DNA from: a virus
IMG/VR virus record: IMGVR_UViG_3300020183_000391
Coordinates: 1-26,807 of that record
Strand: one strand, 5' to 3'
Length of the DNA stretch: 26,807 bases
The notes beneath the pieces are model-generated. The model was given only the letters and a program-made list of their open reading frames with translations, had not been told where the DNA came from and did not search any database. The translations under genes and the position numbers were made by a program. Below, piece by piece: positions 3,926-23,283 of the stretch. Numbering within the stretch: position 1 is the stretch's first letter; each line of letters opens with the position of its first letter.

Positions 3926-6900
3926 TACAAATCCACCTCTTGTACCAAAAAACGTGACCAAACTCTATCAAATTCGGGATTGTTGGCAGCCAGCGACTCG
4001 CCCAACTGGTAGAGCGCCATGCGGGCACCCATTGCTTTCTTCGACCGAAAACTCACCAGGCTCTGCGCTTTCATGTACTGCTCGCGTGCTTTCAGGTACT
4101 GCTTGGTCAAACGGGCAACGTCGTTGTCCTTGAGGCGCGGGTCGTCTACCAATTTGTTCATCTGCGCAATGTCGTTGGTCAGTTTGTTTGCTTCAAATTG
4201 CGCGCGAATCGGGAAGCCCGGGAGTTTTGCGTTCAGGTATTCGCGGTATTGGCTTAGCGCTTCTCGTTGCCTTTCGTTCGGGTTGGGGCCGAACATGCGA
4301 CGGGCCGCACGGTATTTGACCGACCCAAGACGGTTCTGGGCAAAGTCAATCATTTCGCGGTCAGTGAACTTCTCTCGTTTGCCTTCTTGCAACTGGCGCT
4401 GCCACACCGTGAATGAGAACTCACCGCCGCCACGGGGGGCCATGAAGTATGCGGTGTCCGGGAACTGGTTGATGAGGTCTTTGTTTTCGCGTTCCCACAC
4501 ACCGAACTCTTCGGTTGCTTCCAAACCCTGGGCTATGGCACGGCTCTTTGACGAGGTGTACAGAACCAGTTCGTCGCCGTACAGGTCAAGGAATCGGTCC
4601 ACTGCGCTGTCGTAATCGTCCTGTTCAAACTGGCGCAGTTCCTGCAACAGAGCATCAACAAACTTGTCGCCTCGTTTGGTTGGAATCTTCATTTCGACGG
4701 TCGGTGATGCGGGACCGGTGAACTGACCCGTAGCGCGCATGAGGGTGAGGATTTGTGCGCGTTGGCGTGCATCGGCCATCAAACGCGTGACGCCATCTTC
4801 GGTTGATAGGTCGTACCTATCCGAGTTGACCGACAGGGCACGCAACACCTCCATGTAGGTATTGCCGTAGGTGGTGTTCATGTAGACCTGGTTCGTGAGC
4901 ATGCCGCTCACCGCCGGGGCCGCTTTCTGCAACCATGACGGAACCACGTTGACGGCCTGGGTGAACGACACTTCGCCAAATGGAAGCAGTAGTTCTTTCA
5001 ACTTGTCGTACTTGGGGACATCGGGAAGAATCTGGGAAACGGCAAAACTTGCATACGGACCCAACGCCGGATAGAAACTAATGCCCTGGGATAGCCGGGT
5101 TAGCGGGGCTGCAAGTGGTGCGTTGATTCCGGTAAACAGTTTGGCAATCGTTCCTGAGAGTGGGAAGGTGAACATTTGTTCGCCGGTTGACGGGTCACGG
5201 TAAATGAATCCGCGCCCATCGCGGTCCGGGTCTGCCTCGGAGAAGCCGCGGTAAACCTTGTGGAACTGGCGATAGATGTTGATGTTGTCCTCAACGGCCA
5301 ATGATGTGTAGCGGCCGATAACGTCACGCCAGGCGGCTTCGAACGGCGCAACGATGCGCAGAGCGTCCTGAAAGTTGTTGCGCGATGATGCGTCATACAG
5401 CAGTTCTTTGGTGCGGGTAATGCCAACGAAGCGGGAGTATTCGTCCAATTCTTCAACGGTAAGTGTGCCCTGTATGCCCTTGCGTCCTGGCAGCGACTCG
5501 ATTGCTTTTGTCACCTTGGAACGACCAGGCCAGTTGCTTTCGCCAATGTACTTGCGAATGTTGCCACCGCTCTTTTCGTAGATGTCGGCATACAGTTTCA
5601 TGCCTTCTTCGTACGACAACTGATTGATGTGCTTTACAACTTCGTCGTAGTAGTACTGGCGGAACACGACTGACTTTTCCAGTTTGCGAGAAGCCGTGTC
5701 ATACAGGTCAAACCACCAACCAGTGGCTTTGTCCATTGCGTTGTAGACCGCTTCATCAAGCGAGTCATATTTGCCACCGGAACGGTAACGAAGCATCTGT
5801 TCACGTGGATACGAAAATGCCAACCCGCTCTTTGATGTTTCGTCATAAAGTCGCTGGCGCTCAACGAGTCGGCGCGCTTCTTTGGAACCCATTCCATTGC
5901 GTCCCGCCGTGGCGGCATTTTCGCTGACTATGGGTACAAATGTGATTTGATTGCCTTCAATTCTCTGCAGGATTCCTTTCACTTCAACTCCGTCAATTTC
6001 AACGCTGCGCTTCTGACCAATGGCCAATCTGTCTTTTGCATTCTTCAACTTAAACATCGATGCATCAACAACTCTGGTATTTGCCAGGTCGCCCACGGCG
6101 TTGTGCGCAAACAGGAACAGAACGTCATCTAGATTGCCGGTGTTTGTTTTGACGTTGCCGATTACGACGTGCCGGAAATAGGCGTCAAGAATTGAACGAT
6201 AGAAGTCTGGGTCTTGTTTTTTGAGTTGCAACAGATTCAGTGGAGGGAACTTGTGGACTGCGTCATCGGCCTTGTCGTAGAACTCGATGCCGTCGGAAAA
6301 CAAGGCGTTGGTTGCACGAAATGCGTAGGTTCGCTCATTGTCCATGAACTTGAGCAGTTCTTCAACGATTTCGTCTTCGGTTTTTCCTGCAGACAACAAC
6401 AGCGCAACACGACTCTGGAACTCATCTGACTGTGTTTTCTGTGCTGATTGGATAACACCGTCGGTGTGGTATTGGCTGGGGTATCGTTTTGGTCCGTCAG
6501 CGCGCGAAACCAGTGTGAACGAGCCGGTCTTCTTTCTGTGGTAAACGCTGTCAGAAGTGGTCCAACCGTGACGCGTTTTTGTTGACATGAACGCGTTGCG
6601 CAAATCCTCCCACACGTCTTCTTGATTGCTGCGTTCCCACACGCGTCGACGCACACCAGCCTCGGCCATGTCACGGCCTTCTTCGATTGCTTTTCTTCCA
6701 GCGGCTGCACCAAGGTCGGTGAACTCCACACCCATGATGCTCTGCCCATACTTTTTGCCCATCACTGCATGGATGTAATCAATCGGATGCTTGAACTGGT
6801 TGACCCCACCGGTTGCCATGCGGACCTGCGCGTCCATCATGTTACGAACTGCGTATCCTCCGGTTGCAAGTGTGGCCAGTTTCCAGACGCGTTGCTGCAT

Positions 6901-9066
6901 CATTTCGGCAAAAGCCAAGGTGAGACGCTGCTCACCGGTTAGTACTGGACGCTTTGCCTGCTGGGTCATTGCAGCCATCTGGTCTTTTATTTCGTCAATT
7001 CGCTCCTGTGCATTTACGCGAGCAGCACCAATTTCTCGTTCCAACCTGAACACCTCTTCGCCCAACTGGTCATACAGTGCCTGTTGTTCTCGTGGTACAA
7101 CATCAACAGTTCGCCACGGCATGCGGCTAGTAATTGGCAACTTGGGAATGATTTGCTTGCCGTCTTCACCAGAAAGAATTTTGCGGAACAGGGGACTGCG
7201 TGTCAGTCGCCTGATTTGTCGCGTGTCGGGAAGAATCTGAACACGGTTCAACAGGTCGACAAGTTGGGCTGGTTGCATCAGGCGAACATCGCGCATCGTG
7301 TAGCCAGCGCCGTCCATCATTGCGTTGAACAACGCCGGGTCCAAATTCTCTTCAAACTGTTTGAACAGGGCGGCAATGAGGCCGTTGTCCGACTCGACGC
7401 CCTGGCGGTTACGCATCCATGTGCGCATCGTGTCAAGTGTCATTTCGCCGGCGCTCAAGATTTCTTCGACAACTTCTTTTCGCACACCAGCGGACTTCAT
7501 GTAGGTGCGCAAGTAGGACTTGTAGACGTTCATCACGTTTTTGCGTGCGGTCGGCGTGGCGGTTGGAAGTTTGGAGAAGGCTTCGATTGCGCCCATTTGG
7601 TTCTTGTCAGGAACGCCGTTCAGGAATGCTTTGACATCTGCATCGTCTGCACCACCAGCCCGTAGCGAACGGACCAGGTTCATTATCGATGTCTGGTTGT
7701 CAAGGTCGCCGCCAGACACAATGATTTGTTCGTCCGGCACCTGTTGCATGAATCGCATCTTGCGAATGGTTGACCCAACAAGATTGCGTTCGTACTTGTA
7801 GGTTCCGATTGCCGATTGAAGCGTTTTGTCTCCGAACGTCCATCCGCTCGTCAAAGCAGAAATAACCTGGTCTTCGGACTTTGCTTTCCGTAGGCGTAAA
7901 GCCATGTCGGTGGTGATTTTGCCGTCAAAGATGTCTTCCCAGATAACGCCAACGTCGTCGGTGTCAATGAGTTTTTGAACCATGTTTTTTGCGTACGGGT
8001 TGGTCCTGAAGAACTTGTCGAATTGCAGCGCATTGTAGGTTGCACCGGAAAAGTCCATGCCCAAACCCGATTCACGCAAGTAGCGCTGTTTGGTTGGGCC
8101 GAGGGCCTTGCGTAGCGAAATTGCGTCAGCCTCGGAAAGAAGCGGGACCAAGCCCTTTAGACCGGCAATTGGTTTACCAGCCTTCATCAATGTTTCAATT
8201 GCCTCACCGCTACTTACGGCTGCAATACCGTATGTTCCGAGTTTGATTCCCTTGGTGATGTATTTGCTTGGTTCTGGCAGGGCGATGTTGAAAATTGCGT
8301 CGATGATGCCGGAGCCGTAACGGTACGCCATGTCTTCTTCTTTGAAGATTCCTCCGATAGACATGAGCCCACGACCGACAGTGAATGCCGAACCGTAGAT
8401 GGTGCCGCGTGCGGCACGAGAACGGGCTGCTTGTTCTTCTACGATTTTTTGGTTTGGCAGCCAACCCACACCTTGGTCTTCTGGGTTGTCAAGCATTGTG
8501 CCAAGTGTCGAGGCGTGGAACATGCCGGGAATGTCGAGTCCCTTGCCGGTTACAAGCGTCTGACCCAAAGCCGTGTTCGCATATTCGGGCAACGACATCA
8601 ATGCGGCCAAAGACCATCTTGACGCATATTTGGCTGGTCGGGCCGCCAATGTTCCAAGAGCCCCAATGCCAGAAGTTGCCGCACCAACGGTTGTTTCCGC
8701 CACACCAGGAACCAAAGCCTGAAGAGTTTTAGAAGAAATGCGTTTTACGAAACCAGCAGCATCATAAACGTATTGCACGCTGCGCGGCAGAATACCGACG
8801 GCAGCCTTCTTCTGTTCAAACGAATCCATTTCACGTTGCATGTACATCTTGCCAACCTGGTCAACTGCGGCAGTTGAGGCGCCAGCCTTAGCCAAAGACA
8901 ACTGAACCTCGGGCGACAACCACGGTGCGCGATAGTTGATTTGATTCAGTTTCAAAGCCATTGACTTGGAATACTGTGGCGATAACTGGAACCCCAGGGT
9001 TGGGATATCTTGCCCCAATTGCAGGATGTATTCTCTGTCCTCAGGAAACAGGTTGTTGTAAAGCAT
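3925..9066 (-). CDS. Giant late protein, probable internal virion/ejection protein
   Basis: A 1713-aa protein, the largest product in the window. I do not recognise a defined enzyme domain. The N-terminal 250 residues contain Ala/Gly-rich, weakly hydrophobic stretches (around 120-170) that could insert in or pass through a membrane. Residues near 670-705 form a charged coiled coil (RIDEIKDQMAAMTQQ). The C-terminal 150 residues are again long charged helices. Very long, mostly helical, late-operon proteins between portal and capsid are often internal virion or DNA-ejection proteins in short-tailed phages, and this is the favoured reading. A polyvalent protein with a hidden enzyme domain is possible. 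The ATG overlaps the upstream stop (TAATG). The C-terminus meets the next gene's GTG. Confidence 0.65.
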   Translation of the reverse strand: MLYNNLFPEDREYILQLGQDIPTLGFQLSPQYSKSMALKLNQINYRAPWLSPEVQLSLAKAGASTAAVDQVGKMYMQREMDSFEQKKAAVGILPRSVQYVYDAAGFVKRISSKTLQALVPGVAETTVGAATSGIGALGTLAARPAKYASRWSLAALMSLPEYANTALGQTLVTGKGLDIPGMFHASTLGTMLDNPEDQGVGWLPNQKIVEEQAARSRAARGTIYGSAFTVGRGLMSIGGIFKEEDMAYRYGSGIIDAIFNIALPEPSKYITKGIKLGTYGIAAVSSGEAIETLMKAGKPIAGLKGLVPLLSEADAISLRKALGPTKQRYLRESGLGMDFSGATYNALQFDKFFRTNPYAKNMVQKLIDTDDVGVIWEDIFDGKITTDMALRLRKAKSEDQVISALTSGWTFGDKTLQSAIGTYKYERNLVGSTIRKMRFMQQVPDEQIIVSGGDLDNQTSIMNLVRSLRAGGADDADVKAFLNGVPDKNQMGAIEAFSKLPTATPTARKNVMNVYKSYLRTYMKSAGVRKEVVEEILSAGEMTLDTMRTWMRNRQGVESDNGLIAALFKQFEENLDPALFNAMMDGAGYTMRDVRLMQPAQLVDLLNRVQILPDTRQIRRLTRSPLFRKILSGEDGKQIIPKLPITSRMPWRTVDVVPREQQALYDQLGEEVFRLEREIGAARVNAQERIDEIKDQMAAMTQQAKRPVLTGEQRLTLAFAEMMQQRVWKLATLATGGYAVRNMMDAQVRMATGGVNQFKHPIDYIHAVMGKKYGQSIMGVEFTDLGAAAGRKAIEEGRDMAEAGVRRRVWERSNQEDVWEDLRNAFMSTKTRHGWTTSDSVYHRKKTGSFTLVSRADGPKRYPSQYHTDGVIQSAQKTQSDEFQSRVALLLSAGKTEDEIVEELLKFMDNERTYAFRATNALFSDGIEFYDKADDAVHKFPPLNLLQLKKQDPDFYRSILDAYFRHVVIGNVKTNTGNLDDVLFLFAHNAVGDLANTRVVDASMFKLKNAKDRLAIGQKRSVEIDGVEVKGILQRIEGNQITFVPIVSENAATAGRNGMGSKEARRLVERQRLYDETSKSGLAFSYPREQMLRYRSGGKYDSLDEAVYNAMDKATGWWFDLYDTASRKLEKSVVFRQYYYDEVVKHINQLSYEEGMKLYADIYEKSGGNIRKYIGESNWPGRSKVTKAIESLPGRKGIQGTLTVEELDEYSRFVGITRTKELLYDASSRNNFQDALRIVAPFEAAWRDVIGRYTSLAVEDNINIYRQFHKVYRGFSEADPDRDGRGFIYRDPSTGEQMFTFPLSGTIAKLFTGINAPLAAPLTRLSQGISFYPALGPYASFAVSQILPDVPKYDKLKELLLPFGEVSFTQAVNVVPSWLQKAAPAVSGMLTNQVYMNTTYGNTYMEVLRALSVNSDRYDLSTEDGVTRLMADARQRAQILTLMRATGQFTGPASPTVEMKIPTKRGDKFVDALLQELRQFEQDDYDSAVDRFLDLYGDELVLYTSSKSRAIAQGLEATEEFGVWERENKDLINQFPDTAYFMAPRGGGEFSFTVWQRQLQEGKREKFTDREMIDFAQNRLGSVKYRAARRMFGPNPNERQREALSQYREYLNAKLPGFPIRAQFEANKLTNDIAQMNKLVDDPRLKDNDVARLTKQYLKAREQYMKAQSLVSFRSKKAMGARMALYQLGESLAANNPEFDRVWSRFLVQEVDL

Positions 9067-15028: not shown

Positions 15029-15367
15029 AACGAATCTCGTCTCCTAAACGGTTACATTCCTCCTCGCCAACAACGGCCAGGGCAGCATGGTTAGACCGCA
15101 CGGATATAGTGGCCTGAAAAGGGGACCGTAGATTGTCGTCTTCTTTCGGTATGCAGACAGACGGGTTCAGACGTAAAACAGAACTTGGGGGGGCTAAAAC
15201 GTTTCGCAACCAGCAGAAGCCCAAAGCCAAAAGCACAGAAGGAGGGGCCGAAACTCTGACACTTAGGCTACGGCTTCAAATGGCTCTATGTAGAGGACGG
15301 GTATATTACCGCCCCACCCCCCTACGGTAGCGGCATACCCCTAGTTCCTTTCTGCTTGAGCATGGGC
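15029..15367 (-). other. Non-coding region ahead of the late operon
   Basis: About 340 bases separate the terminator at 15368 from the first late gene. They should hold the late-operon promoter. No consensus -35/-10 pair is clear. One candidate is a CGGTAGCGG element at 15325-15333, which reads as GCTACC on the minus strand and lies 17 bp ahead of TAATAT, echoing the upstream element of the three palindrome promoters. The pieces GGGTAT, TACCG, CGGTA and ATACCC there can fold into an interrupted hairpin. A minus-strand frame of 87 codons (14973-15236) crosses the region, but I doubt it codes. An AGGAGG followed almost at once by ATG-TAA lies near 15053-15065. Confidence 0.4.
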
Positions 15368-15407
15368 AAAAAAAAGAACCCCCCGAGCCTTTCGGCCCGG
15401 GGGGTTC
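15368..15407 (-). terminator. Strong intrinsic terminator
   Basis: On the minus strand a GC-rich 14-bp stem closes a GAAA tetraloop (15376-15407) and is followed by eight T residues (15368-15375). It begins 15 bases after the stop codon of the 95-aa gene and insulates that gene from the late operon. This is a textbook rho-independent terminator, with one G-G or similar mismatch at most in the stem. Confidence 0.93.
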
Positions 15408-15421
15408 TCCCGTCGGGGGTT

Positions 15422-15709
15422 CTAGAGTTCGTTCACAACTTTGCAGTTGAAGAGAACTCGCTTGAGCCCTTCTTTGTCGACATGCTCACCCTCTTGAGTG
15501 GTCACCTCGACCAGTTGGAATGCCCCTCGACTCTTGGCGACCCACACGTAGTCGCCTTCGATTGGCATGCCGACCGCTTGACCGTAAGCGACGCTCACGT
15601 ACCAAGTGTCCTTCTTGGCGGTGGTATCTGGTGAATACCACTTACCTCGAGGGATATTACCTATTGCTTTCTTGAGGCTTTCAAGCCTCTGTTCTTTTGC
15701 TGTTGCCAT
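15422..15709 (-). CDS. 95-aa paralogue of the neighbouring 93-aa protein, unknown function
   Basis: Starts at the ATG at 15709, with AGGAGG ten bases upstream. A longer open frame to 15820 runs through the promoter and cannot be the real start. The product has an N-terminal helix and then a beta-rich core: KWYSPDTTAKKDTWYVSV, EGDYVWVAKSRGAFQLVEV and a C-terminal strand (RVLFNCKVV). It matches the 93-aa protein upstream across its length, sharing SPDT-AKK-TWY, GQ, G-P and KSRGAFQ. Net charge is near neutral. It forms a single-gene transcription unit with its own palindrome promoter and a strong terminator. I do not recognise the family. The spacing of strands suggests a small beta-barrel. The arrangement suggests tightly dosed expression in response to one signal. 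Confidence 0.8.
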   Translation of the reverse strand: MATAKEQRLESLKKAIGNIPRGKWYSPDTTAKKDTWYVSVAYGQAVGMPIEGDYVWVAKSRGAFQLVEVTTQEGEHVDKEGLKRVLFNCKVVNEL

Positions 15710-15764
15710 ACTGAGCCCCCCTCCTAGAGGGCTTGTCTCGGTGGCTTTCACCTCGACACTCATC

Positions 15765-15862
15765 ACGGTACTCGAACCACCGAAAAAGTCAAGCGAACAA
15801 GTGTTCGCCCCCTGCCACATGTGCCCCCGTGTGTGCGTATTGGCGCGCGCAATCGGTAGCGC
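15765..15862 (-). promoter_or_regulatory. Palindrome promoter module, copy 1
   Basis: In transcription order: GCGCTACCG (15854-15862), ATACGCAC (15833-15840), a perfect palindrome GCGAACACTTGTTCGC (15793-15808), a TTGACT -35 (15787-15792) directly abutting it, a 16-bp spacer and a TACCGT -10 (15765-15770). The 95-aa gene starts about 50 bases downstream. The palindrome core CGAAC-N4-GTTCG matches the general form of Gram-positive LexA boxes. Its centre lies near -44, so an activator is also possible. Confidence 0.75.
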
Positions 15863-15891
15863 AAGAAGGAGGGAGGCTTGCGCCTCCCTCC
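15863..15891 (-). terminator. Intrinsic terminator after the 93-aa gene
   Basis: A perfect 10-bp stem GGAGGGAGGC/GCCTCCCTCC with a four-base loop (15868-15891) lies 15 bases after the stop codon of the 93-aa gene and is followed by the short pyrimidine run TTCTTG. The T-run is weak, but the stem is strong. It separates the two paralogous single-gene units and abuts the upstream element of the next promoter. Confidence 0.7.
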
Positions 15892-15905
15892 AACCTGCTT
15901 ACTGC

Positions 15906-16187
15906 TTAGGCTAGAACCTTCGCAGTCCACAATGACACTGCCAGACCGTTCTTGTCTGACTTGTCACCCTTGCGTTCCACAAGTTCGGCGTACTGAAACG
16001 CACCCCGTGACTTGGTGACTCGCACTATCCGACCAGCCTCAGGCTTACCTGCGACTTGTCCCTCATGGCACTGAATGTACCATGTCTCCTTCTTGGCTGA
16101 AGTATCAGGACTAGTCCATGTACCCTTCAGCAATTGCTGACTAGCAGCCTCAATGGCTGCCATAGTCACTTGGTCTTGCTTATTCAT
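15906..16187 (-). CDS. 93-aa paralogue of the neighbouring 95-aa protein, unknown function
   Basis: Starts at the ATG at 16187, with AGGAGG nine bases upstream. The ribosome-binding leader closely matches that of its paralogue (CTAGGAGGG then GCTCA). An open frame reaching 16268 is excluded because it would run into the promoter. The protein repeats the plan of the 95-aa neighbour: an N-terminal helix, then TWTSPDTSAKKETWYI, GQVAGKPEAG, a KSRGAFQ motif and a C-terminal strand (SLWTAKVLA). By eye about a third of positions are identical, so the duplication is old although both promoters are kept nearly intact. It has its own promoter and terminator. No known family recognised. Confidence 0.8.
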   Translation of the reverse strand: MNKQDQVTMAAIEAASQQLLKGTWTSPDTSAKKETWYIQCHEGQVAGKPEAGRIVRVTKSRGAFQYAELVERKGDKSDKNGLAVSLWTAKVLA

Positions 16188-16239
16188 GATGAGCACCCTC
16201 CTAGATGCTTGCCGTAGGGAGTTTCCCGACGACCAGCCC

Positions 16240-16330
16240 AGCGTACAGCAAGCCTTGCCAGCCGTCAAGCGAACAGCCGTTCGCCCAGCCCCTCGCGCAT
16301 GTGCGTATTCGCCACCGACATCGGTAGCGC
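16240..16330 (-). promoter_or_regulatory. Palindrome promoter module, copy 2
   Basis: In transcription order: GCGCTACCG (16322-16330), AATACGCAC about 15 bases later, a perfect palindrome GCGAACGGCTGTTCGC (16269-16284), a TTGACG -35 (16263-16268), a 17-bp spacer and a TACGCT -10 (16240-16245). The 93-aa gene starts about 50 bases downstream of the -10. The spacing from GCGCTACCG to ACGCAC equals that in copy 1. Confidence 0.75.
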
Positions 16331-16346
16331 AACGCAGTTTATGGCA

Positions 16347-16412
16347 GATAACAAGAGACTACGGGCAGGTCAGAGGAGGTTTGACGCACTATTGCTGCCT
16401 ACCCGTAGTCTC
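16347..16412 (-). terminator. Hairpin, probable terminator of the MoxR-VWA operon
   Basis: Arms GAGACTACGGG and CCCGTAGTCTC (16355-16365 and 16402-16412) pair perfectly over 11 bp, with three to four more pairs after one mismatch. They enclose a large loop and are followed on the minus strand by TTGTTATC. The hairpin begins seven bases after the stop of the last gene of the operon. The loop contains ACCTCCT, identical to the anti-Shine-Dalgarno of 16S rRNA, so a regulatory RNA role is also possible. Confidence 0.55.
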
Positions 16413-16418
16413 CTAATG

Positions 16419-16580
16419 CTATTTGGCTGAGTGTCTTGCGTATAGAAGCCCTGCGATTACTAGTGCTGCTATTGCTGCTCGCAAGTAGAGACCTGCGCCA
16501 GAGGCTCTGGCTGCTGTGTCTTGGAGAACAATAAGAGCGCCAATAAATGTGAGGCTTGGGTCATTGTTGATTATCCTCAT
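16419..16580 (-). CDS. 53-aa predicted membrane peptide, last gene of the MoxR-VWA operon
   Basis: Starts at the ATG at 16580, with AGAGGA six bases upstream, inside the last codons of the 232-aa gene (20-base overlap). The frame stays open for 53 codons. The sequence has a short hydrophobic patch (LTFIGALIVL) and then a convincing membrane helix (YLRAAIAALVIAGLLYA) followed by a basic tail (RHSAK). This gives an N-out or hairpin topology at most. A small membrane partner at the end of an ATPase/VWA operon may anchor the complex, or act as a holin-like or toxic effector. Those roles are inference. The codon pattern, good ribosome-binding site and following terminator support it as real. Confidence 0.65.
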   Translation of the reverse strand: MRIINNDPSLTFIGALIVLQDTAARASGAGLYLRAAIAALVIAGLLYARHSAK

Positions 16581-17259
16581 CTGTTTCCTCTCCCATGGCT
16601 TTGAGTGCTTGTGACAACATTACTTTGTAGGTGTCTGGGTACTCTTTGCGCATCTCTTGAGGTCCTGTTGTAAAGCGATACTGTGAGCCGACTATGCGCT
16701 TGCCCTCTGTGTAAAGGGTGCTTTCTATCTGCTCTGAGTCGCTTGTGCTTGGGTCGAAGAACGAGGTGAGGCTGTCGCCTGTGGGTAGCACCTTGTGTAT
16801 GGTGACGCATTTGCTTGCGACCATGATGTAGGTGGTTGTGCCTTGTTCTTTGTAGCAGGTGACTGATGCCCATGCTCGTTGTTTCTGTGACCAGTCTGCC
16901 AAGATGGCTGATACAGGACTGTTGAGGTTGTGTAGGCATTCGTCATAGGTGTCAAAGGTGAAGGGTCTGGTGACATTGCCACCCGTGTAGCCCTCTGCCT
17001 TTAGTTGCTCTATGGTCTTGCCCTTGGTCTCTTGTGTCCTGACTGCTTTGTCTGGGTCGACTGTGTCTATGGGTGTTTGTCCTATGAGGTACATCATCAC
17101 TTGCTGCCCTGAAGGGAGTAGGTTCTCCTTCCTTGACTCTTTGACGAGTGTGCCGAGTACTTGTTTCATCTCGGCTTCTCTTGCTTTCCTGATGTCTGTA
17201 GCAGCAGCATCTACGATGCTTTGGACTTCTGCCATCAGGTCTTTGTTGTCATTGGACAT
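16561..17259 (-). CDS. Unknown 232-aa protein downstream of VWA gene
   Basis: The ATG at 17259 overlaps the end of the VWA gene by 11 bases, so translation is coupled. The N-terminal 45 residues are charged helix (MAEVQSIVDAAATDIRKARE). The middle is mixed alpha/beta with aromatic strands (TRPFTFDTYDECL, TTTYIMVASKCVTIHKV). The C-terminus is a helix with an acidic tail (EETDEDNQQ). There is no signal peptide, membrane segment or known catalytic motif, and I do not recognise a family. Its fixed place behind a MoxR-VWA pair suggests it is a substrate adaptor or the target of that complex, an inference from operon logic only. Confidence 0.65.
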   Translation of the reverse strand: MSNDNKDLMAEVQSIVDAAATDIRKAREAEMKQVLGTLVKESRKENLLPSGQQVMMYLIGQTPIDTVDPDKAVRTQETKGKTIEQLKAEGYTGGNVTRPFTFDTYDECLHNLNSPVSAILADWSQKQRAWASVTCYKEQGTTTYIMVASKCVTIHKVLPTGDSLTSFFDPSTSDSEQIESTLYTEGKRIVGSQYRFTTGPQEMRKEYPDTYKVMLSQALKAMGEETDEDNQQ

Positions 17260-18724
17260 AGTTGGTGAACCCCCTGTCGGTATCGTCTTGCCATTGGCTT
17301 AGGGCTTTGAGCCTTGGTCGTTTGCCCATCTGTATTCTGCGTAGCAGTGTTGCTGCTTCGTAGGAGTTGGGTGTGATGTAGATGTCGTGCCTGTCGCAGA
17401 ACTCCAAGCACCAATCTCGCAGGTAGTTGCTGGCGTTGTCGTTCTTGCCTGTGACTCTGGTGTCGCTTATCCATACGACGGGCTCGTTGTGCCGTCGTAG
17501 CGATAAGCCATACTCCAATGCTGGCCCATCTACTCCGTTGTTGCCGGGGAAGTAGGGCAAGGTGCTTGTGCGTCTGCCGTTCTGTGCTACGAGCCACATG
17601 TTGGGCTCATCTGCTCTGTTGCCTGAGGAGTAGCAGAGCACTGTTGCGCCTGCCGTTGCTGCCATTATTCGGTCAAGGTCGTCTCTGTCAAACGACATTG
17701 AGCCTGAGCAGTCGACTATGACTACGCCACCTGTGCTTCGGGTCTTGCGTGAGAACACCCTCTGTTCTGGGTCGGTGTCCTCTCTGGCGATGAACCTGAT
17801 GCTCTTGCCGTATGGCACTGGTATCAGTTTCCTGCCTTTGCGCCCTGTGTGGGGAAGCGTTAGTGGCAGCTTCTCAAGTAGTGCTACGCACCAGCCGTCT
17901 AGCGTTGGCACAATCTGCCTCAAGGCTGGTTTGTCGCCTCGTTGTGGTGTGCGCTTGCCCTCTAGTTGGTTTGGTGTATGGCGTTTGAGTCTGTCCTTGC
18001 CACGCTGTTTGCGCTTCTTGTGCGCTTCTCGCATGGCTTCCTCTTGCTCACGCTGGTTGGCTTTGGCTTGTACGGAGTCAACCCCCCTCATTAGGGTTCG
18101 GCACAAGTGCTCGTACTCTCTGTTGGTGTAGCGAGTGCTGCCTGCGCCCTTCTTGTTGATGTACATTCTGATGGACGTGGAAACATGGGAGATGAAATCG
18201 TTGTACCCGTATTCCATGTCTGCCAAGTCTTTCTGTACATCTGGGTTGGTGACCATGTCCAGTAGTTGCTTGTAAGCGCCTGTGCCTACATACGAAAGCG
18301 CATGGGCAATCGTTGATGGTGGGCATTTGGGCTGACTGAGCATGGCTGCCAATGGCGCAAGGTTGGTTGTGCCTACGGTGGGGTCGCCACCGTAGATGTC
18401 CTTGTAGCCAGTGGTTGCCACTAGTCGTTCTGCGCATGTGACAATGTCCAACGGTATGTCCCTGTTGCGTGCGAACTTGTTCTTGTCAACAAGTCCGTAG
18501 CGTGAGAGAAGCAAGCCGAAGCGACGAAGTCGCCTGAACTCTGGTCCTTCTGCTTCTGGGGCAGAGTAGATGTGAGGTTTCTCTGAGTCTGACAAGACCA
18601 CCGAAACACCGTCAAGAGTCGTGGGCATAGCACCCATTGACTCAAAGCGATTGTGCTTGGCTTTCTTGCGCACCTCCAGAGCCTCTGGGGCGAACTGCGC
18701 CCTGCCGTACTTGGGGTTAGGCAT
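17249..18724 (-). CDS. VWA-domain (MIDAS) protein, partner of MoxR ATPase
   Basis: About 491 aa from the ATG at 18724 (MPNPKYGRAQ), overlapping the MoxR stop by eight bases. A form eight residues longer is open. The N-terminal half is helical with a Lys/Arg/Gln-rich segment near residue 240 (KKRKQRGKDRLKRHTP). The C-terminal domain is a von Willebrand factor A fold: the metal-binding motif DCSGS lies at about residues 338-342 after the strand GGVVIV, followed by a GNNGVDGPAL loop and WISDTRVTG, giving the usual MIDAS ligands. This layout resembles CobT/CoxE/ViaA-type partners of MoxR ATPases, which recognise the client protein that the ATPase remodels or loads with metal. It is transcribed with the ATPase from the promoter at 20559-20663. 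Confidence 0.85.
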   Translation of the reverse strand: MPNPKYGRAQFAPEALEVRKKAKHNRFESMGAMPTTLDGVSVVLSDSEKPHIYSAPEAEGPEFRRLRRFGLLLSRYGLVDKNKFARNRDIPLDIVTCAERLVATTGYKDIYGGDPTVGTTNLAPLAAMLSQPKCPPSTIAHALSYVGTGAYKQLLDMVTNPDVQKDLADMEYGYNDFISHVSTSIRMYINKKGAGSTRYTNREYEHLCRTLMRGVDSVQAKANQREQEEAMREAHKKRKQRGKDRLKRHTPNQLEGKRTPQRGDKPALRQIVPTLDGWCVALLEKLPLTLPHTGRKGRKLIPVPYGKSIRFIAREDTDPEQRVFSRKTRSTGGVVIVDCSGSMSFDRDDLDRIMAATAGATVLCYSSGNRADEPNMWLVAQNGRRTSTLPYFPGNNGVDGPALEYGLSLRRHNEPVVWISDTRVTGKNDNASNYLRDWCLEFCDRHDIYITPNSYEAATLLRRIQMGKRPRLKALSQWQDDTDRGFTNYVQ

Positions 18725-19445
18725 GGTTGCTTGCCTCAGATGCGACAATGGCGAGTGAGTCCAAGATGGACTCTGCCACCTCTGGGAACACCACTTGTGC
18801 CGTGAAAGCCATGTTCTTGGAACGCTGGTACATGTTGTGGAACTCTACGAAAGAGCGCAACGAGTATCGGTATTCTGCGTGCTCTGCCGTAAAGGTGGTT
18901 GCGAGGTTGCGCAAGTACTCTGGCAGTGCTGCTATGGCTTTAGGGTTTGGTTCATTGACGGGGCAACGAACAATCATTCGGTCAAGCACTGCTGGTGCTA
19001 GGTCCTCTGGTTGTCCGTTCATGGTTGCCACGACGCTGAAGGTGCTGTGTGGCTTGACCACCTCGCTTGTGTCAGGGTTCTGCCATGAGGCTGACGCTTC
19101 GGTGTCCAGAAGCATCATCAGTTTGCTCTCGACATCACCGTTGATGCGATTGACCTCGTCTACCACGAGTCTTGCGCCTTCACGCCATGCCTTGATGCCA
19201 ACACCCTCGTACCAGCCGAGTGTGCCGTCTTGCTTGCGCCTCCAGAAGCCAATCAAGTCGGCTTCTGTCATCTCCTCGGTACAAGCGAGCCTGTACGAGG
19301 GCTTTCCGTTGAGGGCATGGGTGAGACCGAAGTAGGTCTTGCCTGTTCCGGGAAGTCCGTACAGAAGCACTCTGTTGGAGTGTTCCATAGCGAACTCTGC
19401 TCGTTGCCATGCTGTGAGGAATGTGTCTTGCTGTTCGGTATTCAT
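18717..19445 (-). CDS. MoxR-type AAA+ ATPase
   Basis: A 242-aa single AAA+ module. Walker A is GLPGTGKT at residues 30-37, Walker B with the catalytic glutamate is LVVDEVNR at 93-100, and EADLIGFW (61-68) is the segment typical of MoxR proteins between them. Sensor 1 lies in VVATMNGQ, followed by APAVLDRM, which carries the arginine of the AAA+ core. The protein is shorter than most cellular MoxR proteins (about 300-350 aa) and has little lid domain. Such ATPases form hexameric rings that act as chaperones or metal-insertion motors together with a VWA protein, which is encoded next and overlaps by eight bases. The ATG overlaps the upstream stop (ATGA). The client in this phage is unknown. Confidence 0.9.
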   Translation of the reverse strand: MNTEQQDTFLTAWQRAEFAMEHSNRVLLYGLPGTGKTYFGLTHALNGKPSYRLACTEEMTEADLIGFWRRKQDGTLGWYEGVGIKAWREGARLVVDEVNRINGDVESKLMMLLDTEASASWQNPDTSEVVKPHSTFSVVATMNGQPEDLAPAVLDRMIVRCPVNEPNPKAIAALPEYLRNLATTFTAEHAEYRYSLRSFVEFHNMYQRSKNMAFTAQVVFPEVAESILDSLAIVASEASNHA

Positions 19446-20182
19446 TGTGCGTTGTCCTCCTTGGACTGCTGGTTGTTGTTGCTGGTTTCCTCCTCGTGCT
19501 TACGAGAGAGGTCTTTGTACAAGGCTTCTGCCACTTCTGGATTAGCCTCGTAGATTGCTTTAGCGCCCACATAGAAGGCGATTAGGGCATTGACCAACTG
19601 GTGGTCGCCCTTGTAGTCCTCTGCGTGGATTGTTTGGAAGTGAACCTCATCTGGCTTGGACAAGAAGCGAGTAGCCACATACACATGGTCACTCATGAGC
19701 ATCGTTGTCACAACGACATCTTGTGGTTCTTTGGGGTCATGGTCATTGGCTGGCTCTCCGTTGACCCATGTTGCTTTGCCCCCAATGCGAAGGAGTACAC
19801 CGATGGTGTTTGTGTCCTTGGCTAGGTGTAGCGCAAGCAACTTGTTCTCAAGCGCATCATAGATGTGACCTGTCTCAGCCACAAGGTTTAGACGGACAAG
19901 CGTGTCTGCGCTAGCCCCATCTATGCTTCCATCACCCTTGATTACTGTGGCAGCACCTGAGTCAATGTCGCTCATGGCTTGGTCTTGTTCATCATCTGGA
20001 ACTACGCGTACGGAATACACTTGATGTACATCGTGGACTGCGCCAAGTTCCTGCCACATGGAGGCTTCTATTTCTTGGAACTCCTTGTTGATGCTCTCGG
20101 CTCGTTCAGATGTCACCTTGGCTTCTGCCTCACTGAGTATTCCCTCAAGTTCAGAGAGAAGTGCGTCGTCAGAAGGGGTCAT
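19442..20182 (-). CDS. Unknown 246-aa protein upstream of MoxR
   Basis: Starts two bases after the stop of the AT-hook gene and overlaps the MoxR start by four bases. Residues 1-45 form an acidic helix (LLSELEGILSEAEAKV). The middle is alpha/beta with several short strands (VYSVRVVP, IGVLLRIGG, DVVVTTMLMSDHVYVATRF). The C-terminus is a helix with an acidic, Asn/Gln-rich tail (EETSNNNQQSKEDNAQ) that resembles the tail of the 232-aa protein at the other end of the operon. No family, catalytic motif or membrane segment recognised. From position it may be a cofactor or client of the ATPase-VWA pair. Confidence 0.65.
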   Translation of the reverse strand: MTPSDDALLSELEGILSEAEAKVTSERAESINKEFQEIEASMWQELGAVHDVHQVYSVRVVPDDEQDQAMSDIDSGAATVIKGDGSIDGASADTLVRLNLVAETGHIYDALENKLLALHLAKDTNTIGVLLRIGGKATWVNGEPANDHDPKEPQDVVVTTMLMSDHVYVATRFLSKPDEVHFQTIHAEDYKGDHQLVNALIAFYVGAKAIYEANPEVAEALYKDLSRKHEEETSNNNQQSKEDNAQ

Positions 20183-20184
20183 GG

Positions 20185-20508
20185 CTACTTGCGCTCCTTG
20201 AGTTTGTCCAACTCCTCAAGCGCCATGTCACGGTCGACCTCTGCCCAGATGACTTTGTTCATGGCGATGTAGTCCTTGCGCCATGCCTGAACGGTACAGA
20301 ATGACACCTTGATGCCCGATAGGGCAAGGGCTTCGTGGATTGCGCGAACTGGTATCTGAGTGTCTACGAGAGACGCTCGGAACAATTCCCACTCTCCGAT
20401 TGGCGCAAGGTGCTCACACACTTTGTCCAACTTGCTTGGTCTGCCTCGCCGTTTGGGCTTTGCCGTTTGCGACAGGGCAATTCTGAATGATACTGGTTTC
20501 TTGGTCAT
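20185..20508 (-). CDS. Small AT-hook/helix-turn-helix protein, first gene of MoxR-VWA operon
   Basis: A 107-aa basic protein. Residues about 17-26 (KPKRRGRPSK) contain the RGRP core of an AT-hook, and residues about 52-75 (IPVRAIHEALALSG then VSFCTVQAWRKDY) fit a helix-turn-helix with a recognition helix near TVQAWRK. It is therefore probably a sequence-specific or architectural DNA-binding protein. It is the first gene after the palindrome promoter and has AGGAG about six bases before its ATG. It could regulate its own promoter or the two other copies of that module. This is inference. The C-terminus is a charged helix (ALEELDKLKERK). Confidence 0.7.
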   Translation of the reverse strand: MTKKPVSFRIALSQTAKPKRRGRPSKLDKVCEHLAPIGEWELFRASLVDTQIPVRAIHEALALSGIKVSFCTVQAWRKDYIAMNKVIWAEVDRDMALEELDKLKERK

Positions 20509-20558: not shown

Positions 20559-20663
20559 AGAGTACCCGACCCCGAACTCGCCGTCAAGCGAACGCATGTT
20601 CGCCCCGATTTCCGGTACTTCGCGTGCGTTCGGTAGCGGTAGCGGTAGCGAAAACGGTAGCGC
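20559..20663 (-). promoter_or_regulatory. Palindrome promoter module, copy 3 (drives the MoxR-VWA operon)
   Basis: In transcription order: GCGCTACCG (20655-20663, touching the stop of the preceding gene), three tandem CTACCG hexamers (20631-20648), ACGCAC, a perfect palindrome GCGAACATGCGTTCGC (20588-20603), a TTGACG -35 (20582-20587), a 17-bp spacer and a TACTCT -10 (20559-20564). The first operon gene starts 51 bases after the -10. The leader can form a GTCGCT/AGCGAC hairpin. This copy differs from the other two by expansion of the CTACCG repeats. Confidence 0.75.
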
Positions 20664-22291: not shown

Positions 22292-22473
22292 ATCCAGTTA
22301 TCACTCCCCTGGCTGACAGCCAGTTGTAGTCGTTCCACCATGGATTTGTACATGGCTATTTGTTTCTCCAGTTCGGTTACCCGAGCCTGAAGGTCTTTCT
22401 TGTCCTCGCGTAGCGTATCAACCACAATCTGTAGTTCGTTTAACCACGCTTGGAACACTTGGGCGTCGCTCAT
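22288..22473 (-). CDS. 61-aa coiled-coil protein
   Basis: Starts at the ATG at 22473, overlapping the WhiB stop by four bases (ATGA). A longer open frame upstream to 22689 is a shadow of the WhiB gene. Almost the whole protein is one heptad-patterned helix (DTLREDKKDLQARVTELEKQ), so it should form a parallel dimer or pair with another coiled coil. It may be a partner of the WhiB-like protein, given strict coupling, or a scaffold for other early proteins. No family recognised. Confidence 0.65.
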   Translation of the reverse strand: MSDAQVFQAWLNELQIVVDTLREDKKDLQARVTELEKQIAMYKSMVERLQLAVSQGSDNWI

Positions 22474-22751
22474 TTCTTTTTCTCCAGCGACGCAAGAATC
22501 TGTGCAGCGGAACGCCGACGCTGCTTTGGTGACAACCCACCCCACACACCGAAATCGATGCCGTTGTTTATTGCGTAACGCAGACAGTCCTTGTAGACTG
22601 TGCATTTTGCGCAGATGGCTTGGGCTTCTTTGTAGACGCGGTTGGCTGCTGTGTCTGGGAAGAACGTTTCGTATGGTGCGCCTTTGCATGCGGCGTTCTC
22701 ACGGAACCTGTCGTCTTTGTCGACAAGTTCCCATTCGCTCAACAATTGCAT
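22470..22751 (-). CDS. WhiB-like iron-sulfur transcription regulator
   Basis: About 93 aa from the ATG at 22751. A longer frame to 22808 would overlap the lysozyme gene by 53 bases. The four conserved cysteines are C22 (NAACKG), C47 and C50 (ICAKC) and C56 (KDCLRYA), which bind a 4Fe-4S cluster. GVWGG (68-72) is the signature turn, followed by a basic helix (SPKQRRRSAAQ) that contacts DNA. WhiB proteins are confined to Actinobacteria and their phages and act with the main sigma factor. This is the strongest clue to the host. In mycobacteriophage TM4 a phage WhiB represses host whiB2 and affects septation and superinfection. A like role is possible here. Confidence 0.92.
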   Translation of the reverse strand: MQLLSEWELVDKDDRFRENAACKGAPYETFFPDTAANRVYKEAQAICAKCTVYKDCLRYAINNGIDFGVWGGLSPKQRRRSAAQILASLEKKK

Positions 22752-22755
22752 GTAG

Positions 22756-23283
22756 TTATATCCCCCACGGCTGGAAGCCGTTTCCATTGTGTTTTTTCGA
22801 ATAGTCATGGATTGCTTTGGCTGCTTCCAAGTTTATTGCCGGGTCGAACAATTCGTCACAGCCAACTTTAGTGAGTACGCCGATTGTTTGCAAGTATCCG
22901 TTCGGATACCAGCGTGTGGGCAGGCACCATGACCTGTCGTTGATTTGGGTCAACCCGATATCAGTCGAGCCGTCTTTGTTAAGGGTCGTGTTGTGTTGCG
23001 TCGGGTCGCACCGGGACTCGCGCCACATCAGATAGTCAAGGGTTGGCATGCTGTCGGCATGCCAACCCAAATCCAATGCCAACCCCCACCACTGACCACA
23101 CCGGGCTGCGGGCGGAACCATTGCGCCGTTGGCAGTCGTGGTGGGAGTTGGTTCGACTGTGGTTGAGGAAACTACAACCGTGGTCGAAGTAATAGTTGGG
23201 GCCGTTGCTTGCGGTGCTTTAGTTATGCCAAGCGCCAGCAGCGTGATTGAGGCGGCCCCCAAAACTCTTGCTAGGTATTCCAT
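22756..23283 (-). CDS. Membrane-anchored or secreted lysozyme/transglycosylase-like protein
   Basis: About 175 aa from the ATG at 23283, with AAGGAG four bases upstream. The N-terminus is a signal peptide or single membrane anchor (LGAASITLLALGI, residues 8-20), followed by a Thr/Val/Pro linker (to about residue 52) suited to crossing the cell wall. The catalytic domain shows the lysozyme-like pattern of lytic transglycosylases: a glutamate in MWRESRCDP (E89), DIGLTQIN at 108-115, and Cys, Trp and Tyr residues further on. It would cut peptidoglycan outside the membrane. Position in the early operon next to whiB, not with lysis genes, is odd. A role in superinfection control or wall remodelling is as likely as lysis. 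Confidence 0.82.
   Translation of the reverse strand: MEYLARVLGAASITLLALGITKAPQATAPTITSTTVVVSSTTVEPTPTTTANGAMVPPAARCGQWWGLALDLGWHADSMPTLDYLMWRESRCDPTQHNTTLNKDGSTDIGLTQINDRSWCLPTRWYPNGYLQTIGVLTKVGCDELFDPAINLEAAKAIHDYSKKHNGNGFQPWGI

What the first reader, a model, noticed from the sequence alone, without database searches (positions are those of the whole stretch)
15368..16330. Two adjacent paralogous mini-operons, each with its own palindrome promoter and terminator
Seen: the 95-aa and 93-aa proteins share SPDT-AKK-TWY, GQ and KSRGAFQ along their length. Each is a single-gene unit of about 450 bp with the same promoter layout, the same AGGAGG leader and a strong hairpin terminator. The proteins have diverged far more than the promoters. 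Phages seldom spend this much regulatory DNA on genes under 100 codons. Inference: a tandem duplication of a whole expression cassette followed by specialisation, for example against two host targets, with pressure for autonomous, strong, transient expression.
Basis: seen in the sequence. Interest (0 to 1): 0.68.

Follow-up and report, generated by a model that had tools for sequence, protein, structure and literature searches.

The report
Twin SOS-controlled phage gene cassettes
A virus of actinobacteria carries two side-by-side copies of a small, uncharacterised gene, each with its own promoter bearing the binding site of the host's DNA-damage repressor LexA, so the pair probably switches on only when the host's SOS alarm goes off.

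Summary
Two paralogous genes (p95, p93; 43% aa identity, E=4e-24) lie in tandem, each with its own promoter, Shine-Dalgarno and hairpin. The palindrome is CGAAC-N4-GTTCG, the actinobacterial LexA (SOS) box, beside a -35 TTGAC. A third such promoter (box 20589-20602) drives the upstream operon (HTH-like, o246, MoxR-AAA, vWA). The same box lies near lexA in 30 of 32 Acidimicrobiia loci and is the commonest 5-4-5 palindrome in 25 related phage records (36 copies; next 12; mean 0.9). Close relatives keep both genes and boxes under purifying selection (dN/dS 0.07-0.21); distant relatives carry one divergent copy in the same slot, so cassette duplication is supported. A sister clade keeps both cassettes and the promoter skeleton but lacks all three boxes, so the box is a modular operator. 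p93 models as a small beta-barrel (pLDDT 91) without Pfam, PHROG or PDB match. Best explanation: phage effectors repressed by host LexA and timed by SOS. LexA control is strongly inferred, not shown; the proteins' role is unknown. 'Two host targets' is unsupported. No integrase or CI-type repressor was recognised in a near-complete relative, so LexA may be the phage's own switch, as in GIL01.

The parts
15422..15709 (-). p95, 95-aa small beta-barrel protein gene (second cassette)
15906..16187 (-). p93, 93-aa paralogue (first cassette)
15794..15807 (-). LexA (SOS) box CGAACACTTGTTCG of p95
16270..16283 (-). LexA (SOS) box CGAACGGCTGTTCG of p93
20589..20602 (-). LexA (SOS) box CGAACATGCGTTCG of the upstream operon
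15765..15792 (-). p95 core promoter: TTGACT-N16-TACCGT
   Evidence: read from sequence
16240..16268 (-). p93 core promoter: TTGACG-N17-TACGCT
   Evidence: read from sequence
20559..20587 (-). operon core promoter: TTGACG-N17-TACTCT
   Evidence: read from sequence
15854..15860 (-). conserved GCTACCG element upstream of p95
16322..16328 (-). conserved GCTACCG element upstream of p93
20631..20661 (-). four GCTACCG elements, three in tandem, upstream of the operon promoter
15366..15408 (-). intrinsic terminator of p95 (hairpin + T8)
15868..15891 (-). strong hairpin after p93, no clear T-tract
16355..16412 (-). strong hairpin between the operon end and the p93 promoter
16419..20508 (-). operon under the third LexA-box promoter: HTH-like 107-aa gene, o246, MoxR AAA ATPase, vWA-like, o232, o53

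Best explanation
p93 and p95 are paralogous members of an unrecognised small-protein family in a group of podovirus-like phages of actinobacteria, made by duplication of a whole one-gene cassette. Each promoter carries the host LexA operator one base from the -35 hexamer, so bound LexA should block RNA polymerase. When RecA filaments form, through DNA damage or ssDNA from the phage's own RecE-like recombination, LexA would be cleaved and the two cassettes plus the upstream MoxR/vWA operon would fire together, just before the late genes. Shown: duplication, conservation and constraint of both copies, identity and fixed position of the boxes, and their match to boxes at lexA in actinobacterial genomes. 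Strongly inferred: LexA repression and SOS induction. Only guessed: that the proteins act as SOS-timed regulators of the phage or host programme (for instance on LexA/RecA or the switch to late transcription).
For: Homology of the pair. Exactly two copies in nine relatives, same slot, conserved synteny, dN/dS 0.07-0.21, separate orthologue groups. Single divergent copy in outgroup phages. Exact boxes at all three promoters in the window and recurring at the same promoters in relatives. Box is the commonest of 1024 palindromes of its shape in 25 phage records, 36 vs next 12; 0.07 expected per shuffled window. Same box near lexA in 30 of 32 Acidimicrobiia and 21 of 31 Actinomycetes loci; published Streptomyces consensus tCGAAC-N4-GNNCGa (PMC9380542). 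WhiB gene indicates an actinobacterial host.
Against: No binding or expression data. G002-G004 have a one-mismatch box before p95, and the sister clade L128/L129 lives without any box, so LexA control is not essential to the cassettes. Host not identified. A phage regulator with the same specificity cannot be excluded. No structure or family match tells the proteins' function.
Confidence: 0.75

Rival explanations
1. LexA is the phage's main repressor of lytic genes in a non-integrated dormant or carrier state, as in phage GIL01, and p93/p95 are parts of that switch (antirepressor-like or LexA-modulating).
For: Three LexA-box promoters; no integrase or CI/S24 repressor among Pfam hits of near-complete relative G001; precedents GIL01 and LexA-controlled Gifsy antirepressors.
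Against: No close prophage in 395 Acidimicrobiia genomes; PHROG list was cut at 25 of 49 families, so a divergent repressor could be missed; late leader has no LexA box; box-less sister phages exist.
Confidence: 0.3
2. The palindrome is the operator of a phage-encoded regulator that happens to resemble the SOS box.
For: Phage boxes are flanked G..C (21 and 18 of 24), unlike the T..A of Actinomycetes boxes; GCTACCG elements show the promoters have another conserved site too.
Against: The core is identical to boxes near host lexA, where flanks vary in Acidimicrobiia. No LexA-like or CI-like gene seen in G001. The 107-aa HTH-like gene is replaced by another ORF in the box-less clade.
Confidence: 0.15
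3. One reading: unregulated strong early expression of two host-takeover proteins specialised for two host targets.
For: Small proteins, own promoters and terminators, old divergence of the paralogues.
Against: Operators at all three promoters argue for conditional expression; no effector family matches; in the sister clade both copies are p95-like.
Confidence: 0.1

Closest known systems
Phage GIL01 lytic switch (host LexA with gp7 and gp6; PMC4551915, PMC6182141)
   Same: Host LexA boxes at phage promoters; no dedicated repressor recognised; small phage proteins under SOS control
   Different: GIL01 is a Bacillus tectivirus with a known dormant linear-plasmid state and a tested LexA partner; here a podovirus-like phage of actinobacteria, late leader without a LexA box, no tested partner
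LexA-controlled antirepressors of Gifsy prophages (PMC3121763)
   Same: Small phage proteins whose genes are directly under LexA, set apart from other genes by hairpins
   Different: No cognate phage repressor recognised here; duplicated cassette; no sequence comparison made
CtrA boxes in alphaproteobacterial phages (PMC9437464)
   Same: Phages placing a host master regulator's boxes at their own promoters
   Different: LexA/SOS instead of CtrA/cell cycle; no experimental proof here

Membership tests
LexA (SOS) regulon promoter, actinobacterial type | CGAAC-N4-GTTCG core at the promoter | tested here: met
   exact at all three window promoters
LexA (SOS) regulon promoter, actinobacterial type | same box near lexA in candidate host groups | tested here: met
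   30 of 32 Acidimicrobiia, 21 of 31 Actinomycetes loci
LexA (SOS) regulon promoter, actinobacterial type | LexA binding and SOS induction | not testable with these tools
   needs EMSA and reporter assays
GIL01-type LexA-maintained lysogeny | no dedicated phage repressor or integrase | tested here: inconclusive
   none among Pfam hits of G001, but PHROG list truncated and a few hundred bases of G001 missing
GIL01-type LexA-maintained lysogeny | stable dormant state and LexA partner protein (gp7) | not testable with these tools
   no isolate; gp7 not compared; no close prophage in 395 Acidimicrobiia genomes
LexA-controlled antirepressor (Gifsy type) | cognate phage repressor | tested here: inconclusive
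   none recognised in G001
Any Pfam, PHROG or PDB protein family | significant profile or fold match | tested here: not met

The most novel reading that the evidence does not exclude
A lineage of podovirus-like phages of actinobacteria with no recognised lysogeny repressor or integrase uses the host's LexA as its own timer, holding a MoxR/vWA operon and a duplicated pair of new-fold effectors until the host, or the phage's recombination-driven replication, raises the SOS alarm; the operator set is gained and lost as a unit between sister clades.
Probability: 0.35. Interest if true: 0.7.

Novelty: new variant of a known kind. Interest (0 to 1): 0.52.

Why it matters
Host-LexA control of phage genes is known from a few temperate phages. 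Here it appears across an uncultured group of actinobacterial phages without lysogeny genes that family searches recognise, on three coordinated promoters, with box-less sister phages as a natural control. It gives a direct, testable prediction of SOS-timed infection and defines a conserved protein family of unknown function.

Tried and rejected
Fourth exact box at 138-151: by alignment with G001 (box 8084-8097 inside the capsid ORF) it appears to lie in the major capsid gene and follows from conserved ELLFD codons, so it was not counted; boxes L148:285 and L155:620 look like the same effect in the SLT gene. G017's slot gene (115 aa) as a homologue: hhalign probability 0.4%, rejected, although it carries two LexA boxes in the same slot. 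Pfam, PHROGs and PDB-sequence searches of the family: nothing. Fold searches: no PDB match with E<0.1 for either model; three matches with E<0.001 among predicted viral proteins, two named only as uncharacterised and one unnamed. The family in bacterial genomes and p95 in 50,697 phage records: none. Exact box + CTTGAC in all genome contigs: 21 hits, about what chance gives, so not used as host evidence by itself. Rfam: only sub-threshold hits on the terminator hairpin. The generic sigma-70 scan does not list these promoters.

Full report
On the minus strand lie p95 (15422-15709) and p93 (15906-16187), 43% identical over 84 residues without gaps, E=4e-24. Each is a unit of its own: promoter, AGGAGG, one gene, hairpin. 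The hairpin after p95 (15366-15408) is a textbook terminator with a T8 tail; those between the cassettes (15868-15891) and before p93 (16355-16412) are as stable but lack a clear T-tract.

What the palindrome is. Both palindromes are CGAAC-N4-GTTCG, one base upstream of a TTGAC -35 hexamer, with TACnnT -10s 16-17 nt further on. A third promoter of the same build (box 20589-20602) precedes a long operon: an HTH-like gene, o246, a MoxR-type AAA ATPase (PF07728), a vWA-like gene, o232 and o53. Shuffled windows hold 0.07 such boxes on average and none with TTGAC attached. In 25 records of this phage group (437 kb) the box is the commonest of all 1024 palindromes of this shape: 36 copies, next 12, mean 0.9; other orderings of the same five letters give at most 4. 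A few of the 36 lie in coding sequence and are probably coincidental.

It matches the LexA box of actinobacteria. The published Streptomyces consensus is tCGAAC-N4-GNNCGa (PMC9380542). Checked in genomes: 30 of 32 lexA loci from Acidimicrobiia carry the exact box, 49 boxes where 0.11 are expected, and 21 of 31 Actinomycetes loci do too. Actinomycetes boxes are mostly flanked T..A, while the phage boxes are flanked G (21 of 24) and C (18 of 24), which Acidimicrobiia boxes tolerate. With the WhiB gene at 22470-22808 (PF02467) this points to an actinobacterial, perhaps Acidimicrobiia, host; the host is not proven.

Relatives. IMG/VR holds the same gene block in many contigs. Nine of them (G001-G007, G009, G018) have exactly two family members side by side between the vWA operon and terL; G008 is cut off after the first. 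The boxes recur at the cassettes and the operon, with a one-mismatch box before p95 in G002-G004 and no exact box seen before p95 in G006. p93s and p95s form separate groups (100/100; 95/95 and 95/93 with outgroups), and dN/dS between orthologues is 0.07-0.21: both copies are kept and constrained. More distant phages (terL about 75%) have one divergent member in that slot (hmmsearch E from 5e-10 to 0.002), some with a LexA box (L143, L144, L153), some without. So a single copy is most likely ancestral and the cassette was duplicated in the window's lineage.

A natural control. The sister clade (L128, L129; terL tree) keeps the operon, both cassettes and the rest of each promoter (GCTACCG repeats, AATACG element in the cassettes, TTGAC and -10), but none of its three promoters has the box. 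Its four family copies cluster together inside the p95 side, which suggests gene conversion or a second duplication. The box is therefore a module gained or lost as a set on an existing promoter skeleton, as expected for the operator of one trans-acting factor.

The proteins. No Pfam, PHROG or PDB-sequence relatives. With 20 sequences AlphaFold2 gives p93 at pLDDT 90.7: an N-terminal helix and five strands, which I read as a small barrel. No solved structure matches at E<0.1; for the weaker p95 model three predicted viral proteins match at E<0.001, two named only as uncharacterised and one without a name. The biochemical function remains unknown.

Most likely working (inference). Host LexA keeps the three promoters shut; RecA activation by damage, or by ssDNA from the phage's own exonuclease (YqaJ in the window; RecE-like phrog_434 in G001), opens them together. 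The cassettes sit directly before the late genes, whose conserved leader has a GCTACCG-N19-20-TATACC element and no LexA box. Relative G001 (38.2 kb, its long gene split over the contig ends, near-complete by my reading) shows no integrase, CI/S24 repressor or DNA polymerase among Pfam hits; the PHROG list was cut at 25 of 49 families. A GIL01-like use of LexA as the phage's own switch is possible (PMC6182141, PMC4551915), but no close prophage was seen in 395 Acidimicrobiia genomes; the single terL match was 36-40% identical.

Comparison. Host-LexA control of phage genes is known (GIL01; Gifsy antirepressors, PMC3121763), and host-regulator boxes in phage promoters are known for CtrA (PMC9437464). 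New here are the phage group, the three coordinated promoters with box-less sister phages, the duplicated cassette and the protein family. Verdict: observation confirmed, interpretation partly supported, new variant of a known kind.

Noticed in passing
15030-15345 (-): About 300 bp of apparently non-coding DNA between the p95 terminator and the late genes is conserved in relatives, with GCTACCG-N19-20-TATACC and a G-rich run GGGGGGTGGGG; possible late promoter, leader or packaging signal.
   Followed up: partly
20631-20661, 16322-16328, 15854-15860, 15325-15331 (-): GCTACCG occurs 8 times on the minus strand (1.1 expected), 7 of them near these promoters and the late leader, and stays in the box-less clade: a likely second regulatory element of unknown binder.
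   Followed up: partly
L143:5300-5340, L144:4708-4750, L153:4624-4665: In these single-copy phages the LexA box is followed by a second palindrome (CAAGTACCCCCTAAAGGGGGTACTTG in L143 and L144) that runs into the -35.
   Followed up: no
L034:5354-5382 and 4919-5263 (-): G017 has two LexA boxes side by side before an unrelated 115-aa gene in the same slot: the slot may hold different SOS-controlled cargo.
   Followed up: partly
L128:9159-9886, L129:9191-9920: Both copies in the box-less clade are p95-like and cluster together: gene conversion or independent duplication.
   Followed up: partly
22470-22808 (-): Phage-encoded WhiB regulator (PF02467), a marker of an actinobacterial host.
   Followed up: yes
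L045, L061: Box directly followed by CTTGAC upstream of an FtsK/SpoIIIE-like gene (identified by eye) in two actinobacterial MAGs, hinting that it is SOS-controlled there.
   Followed up: no
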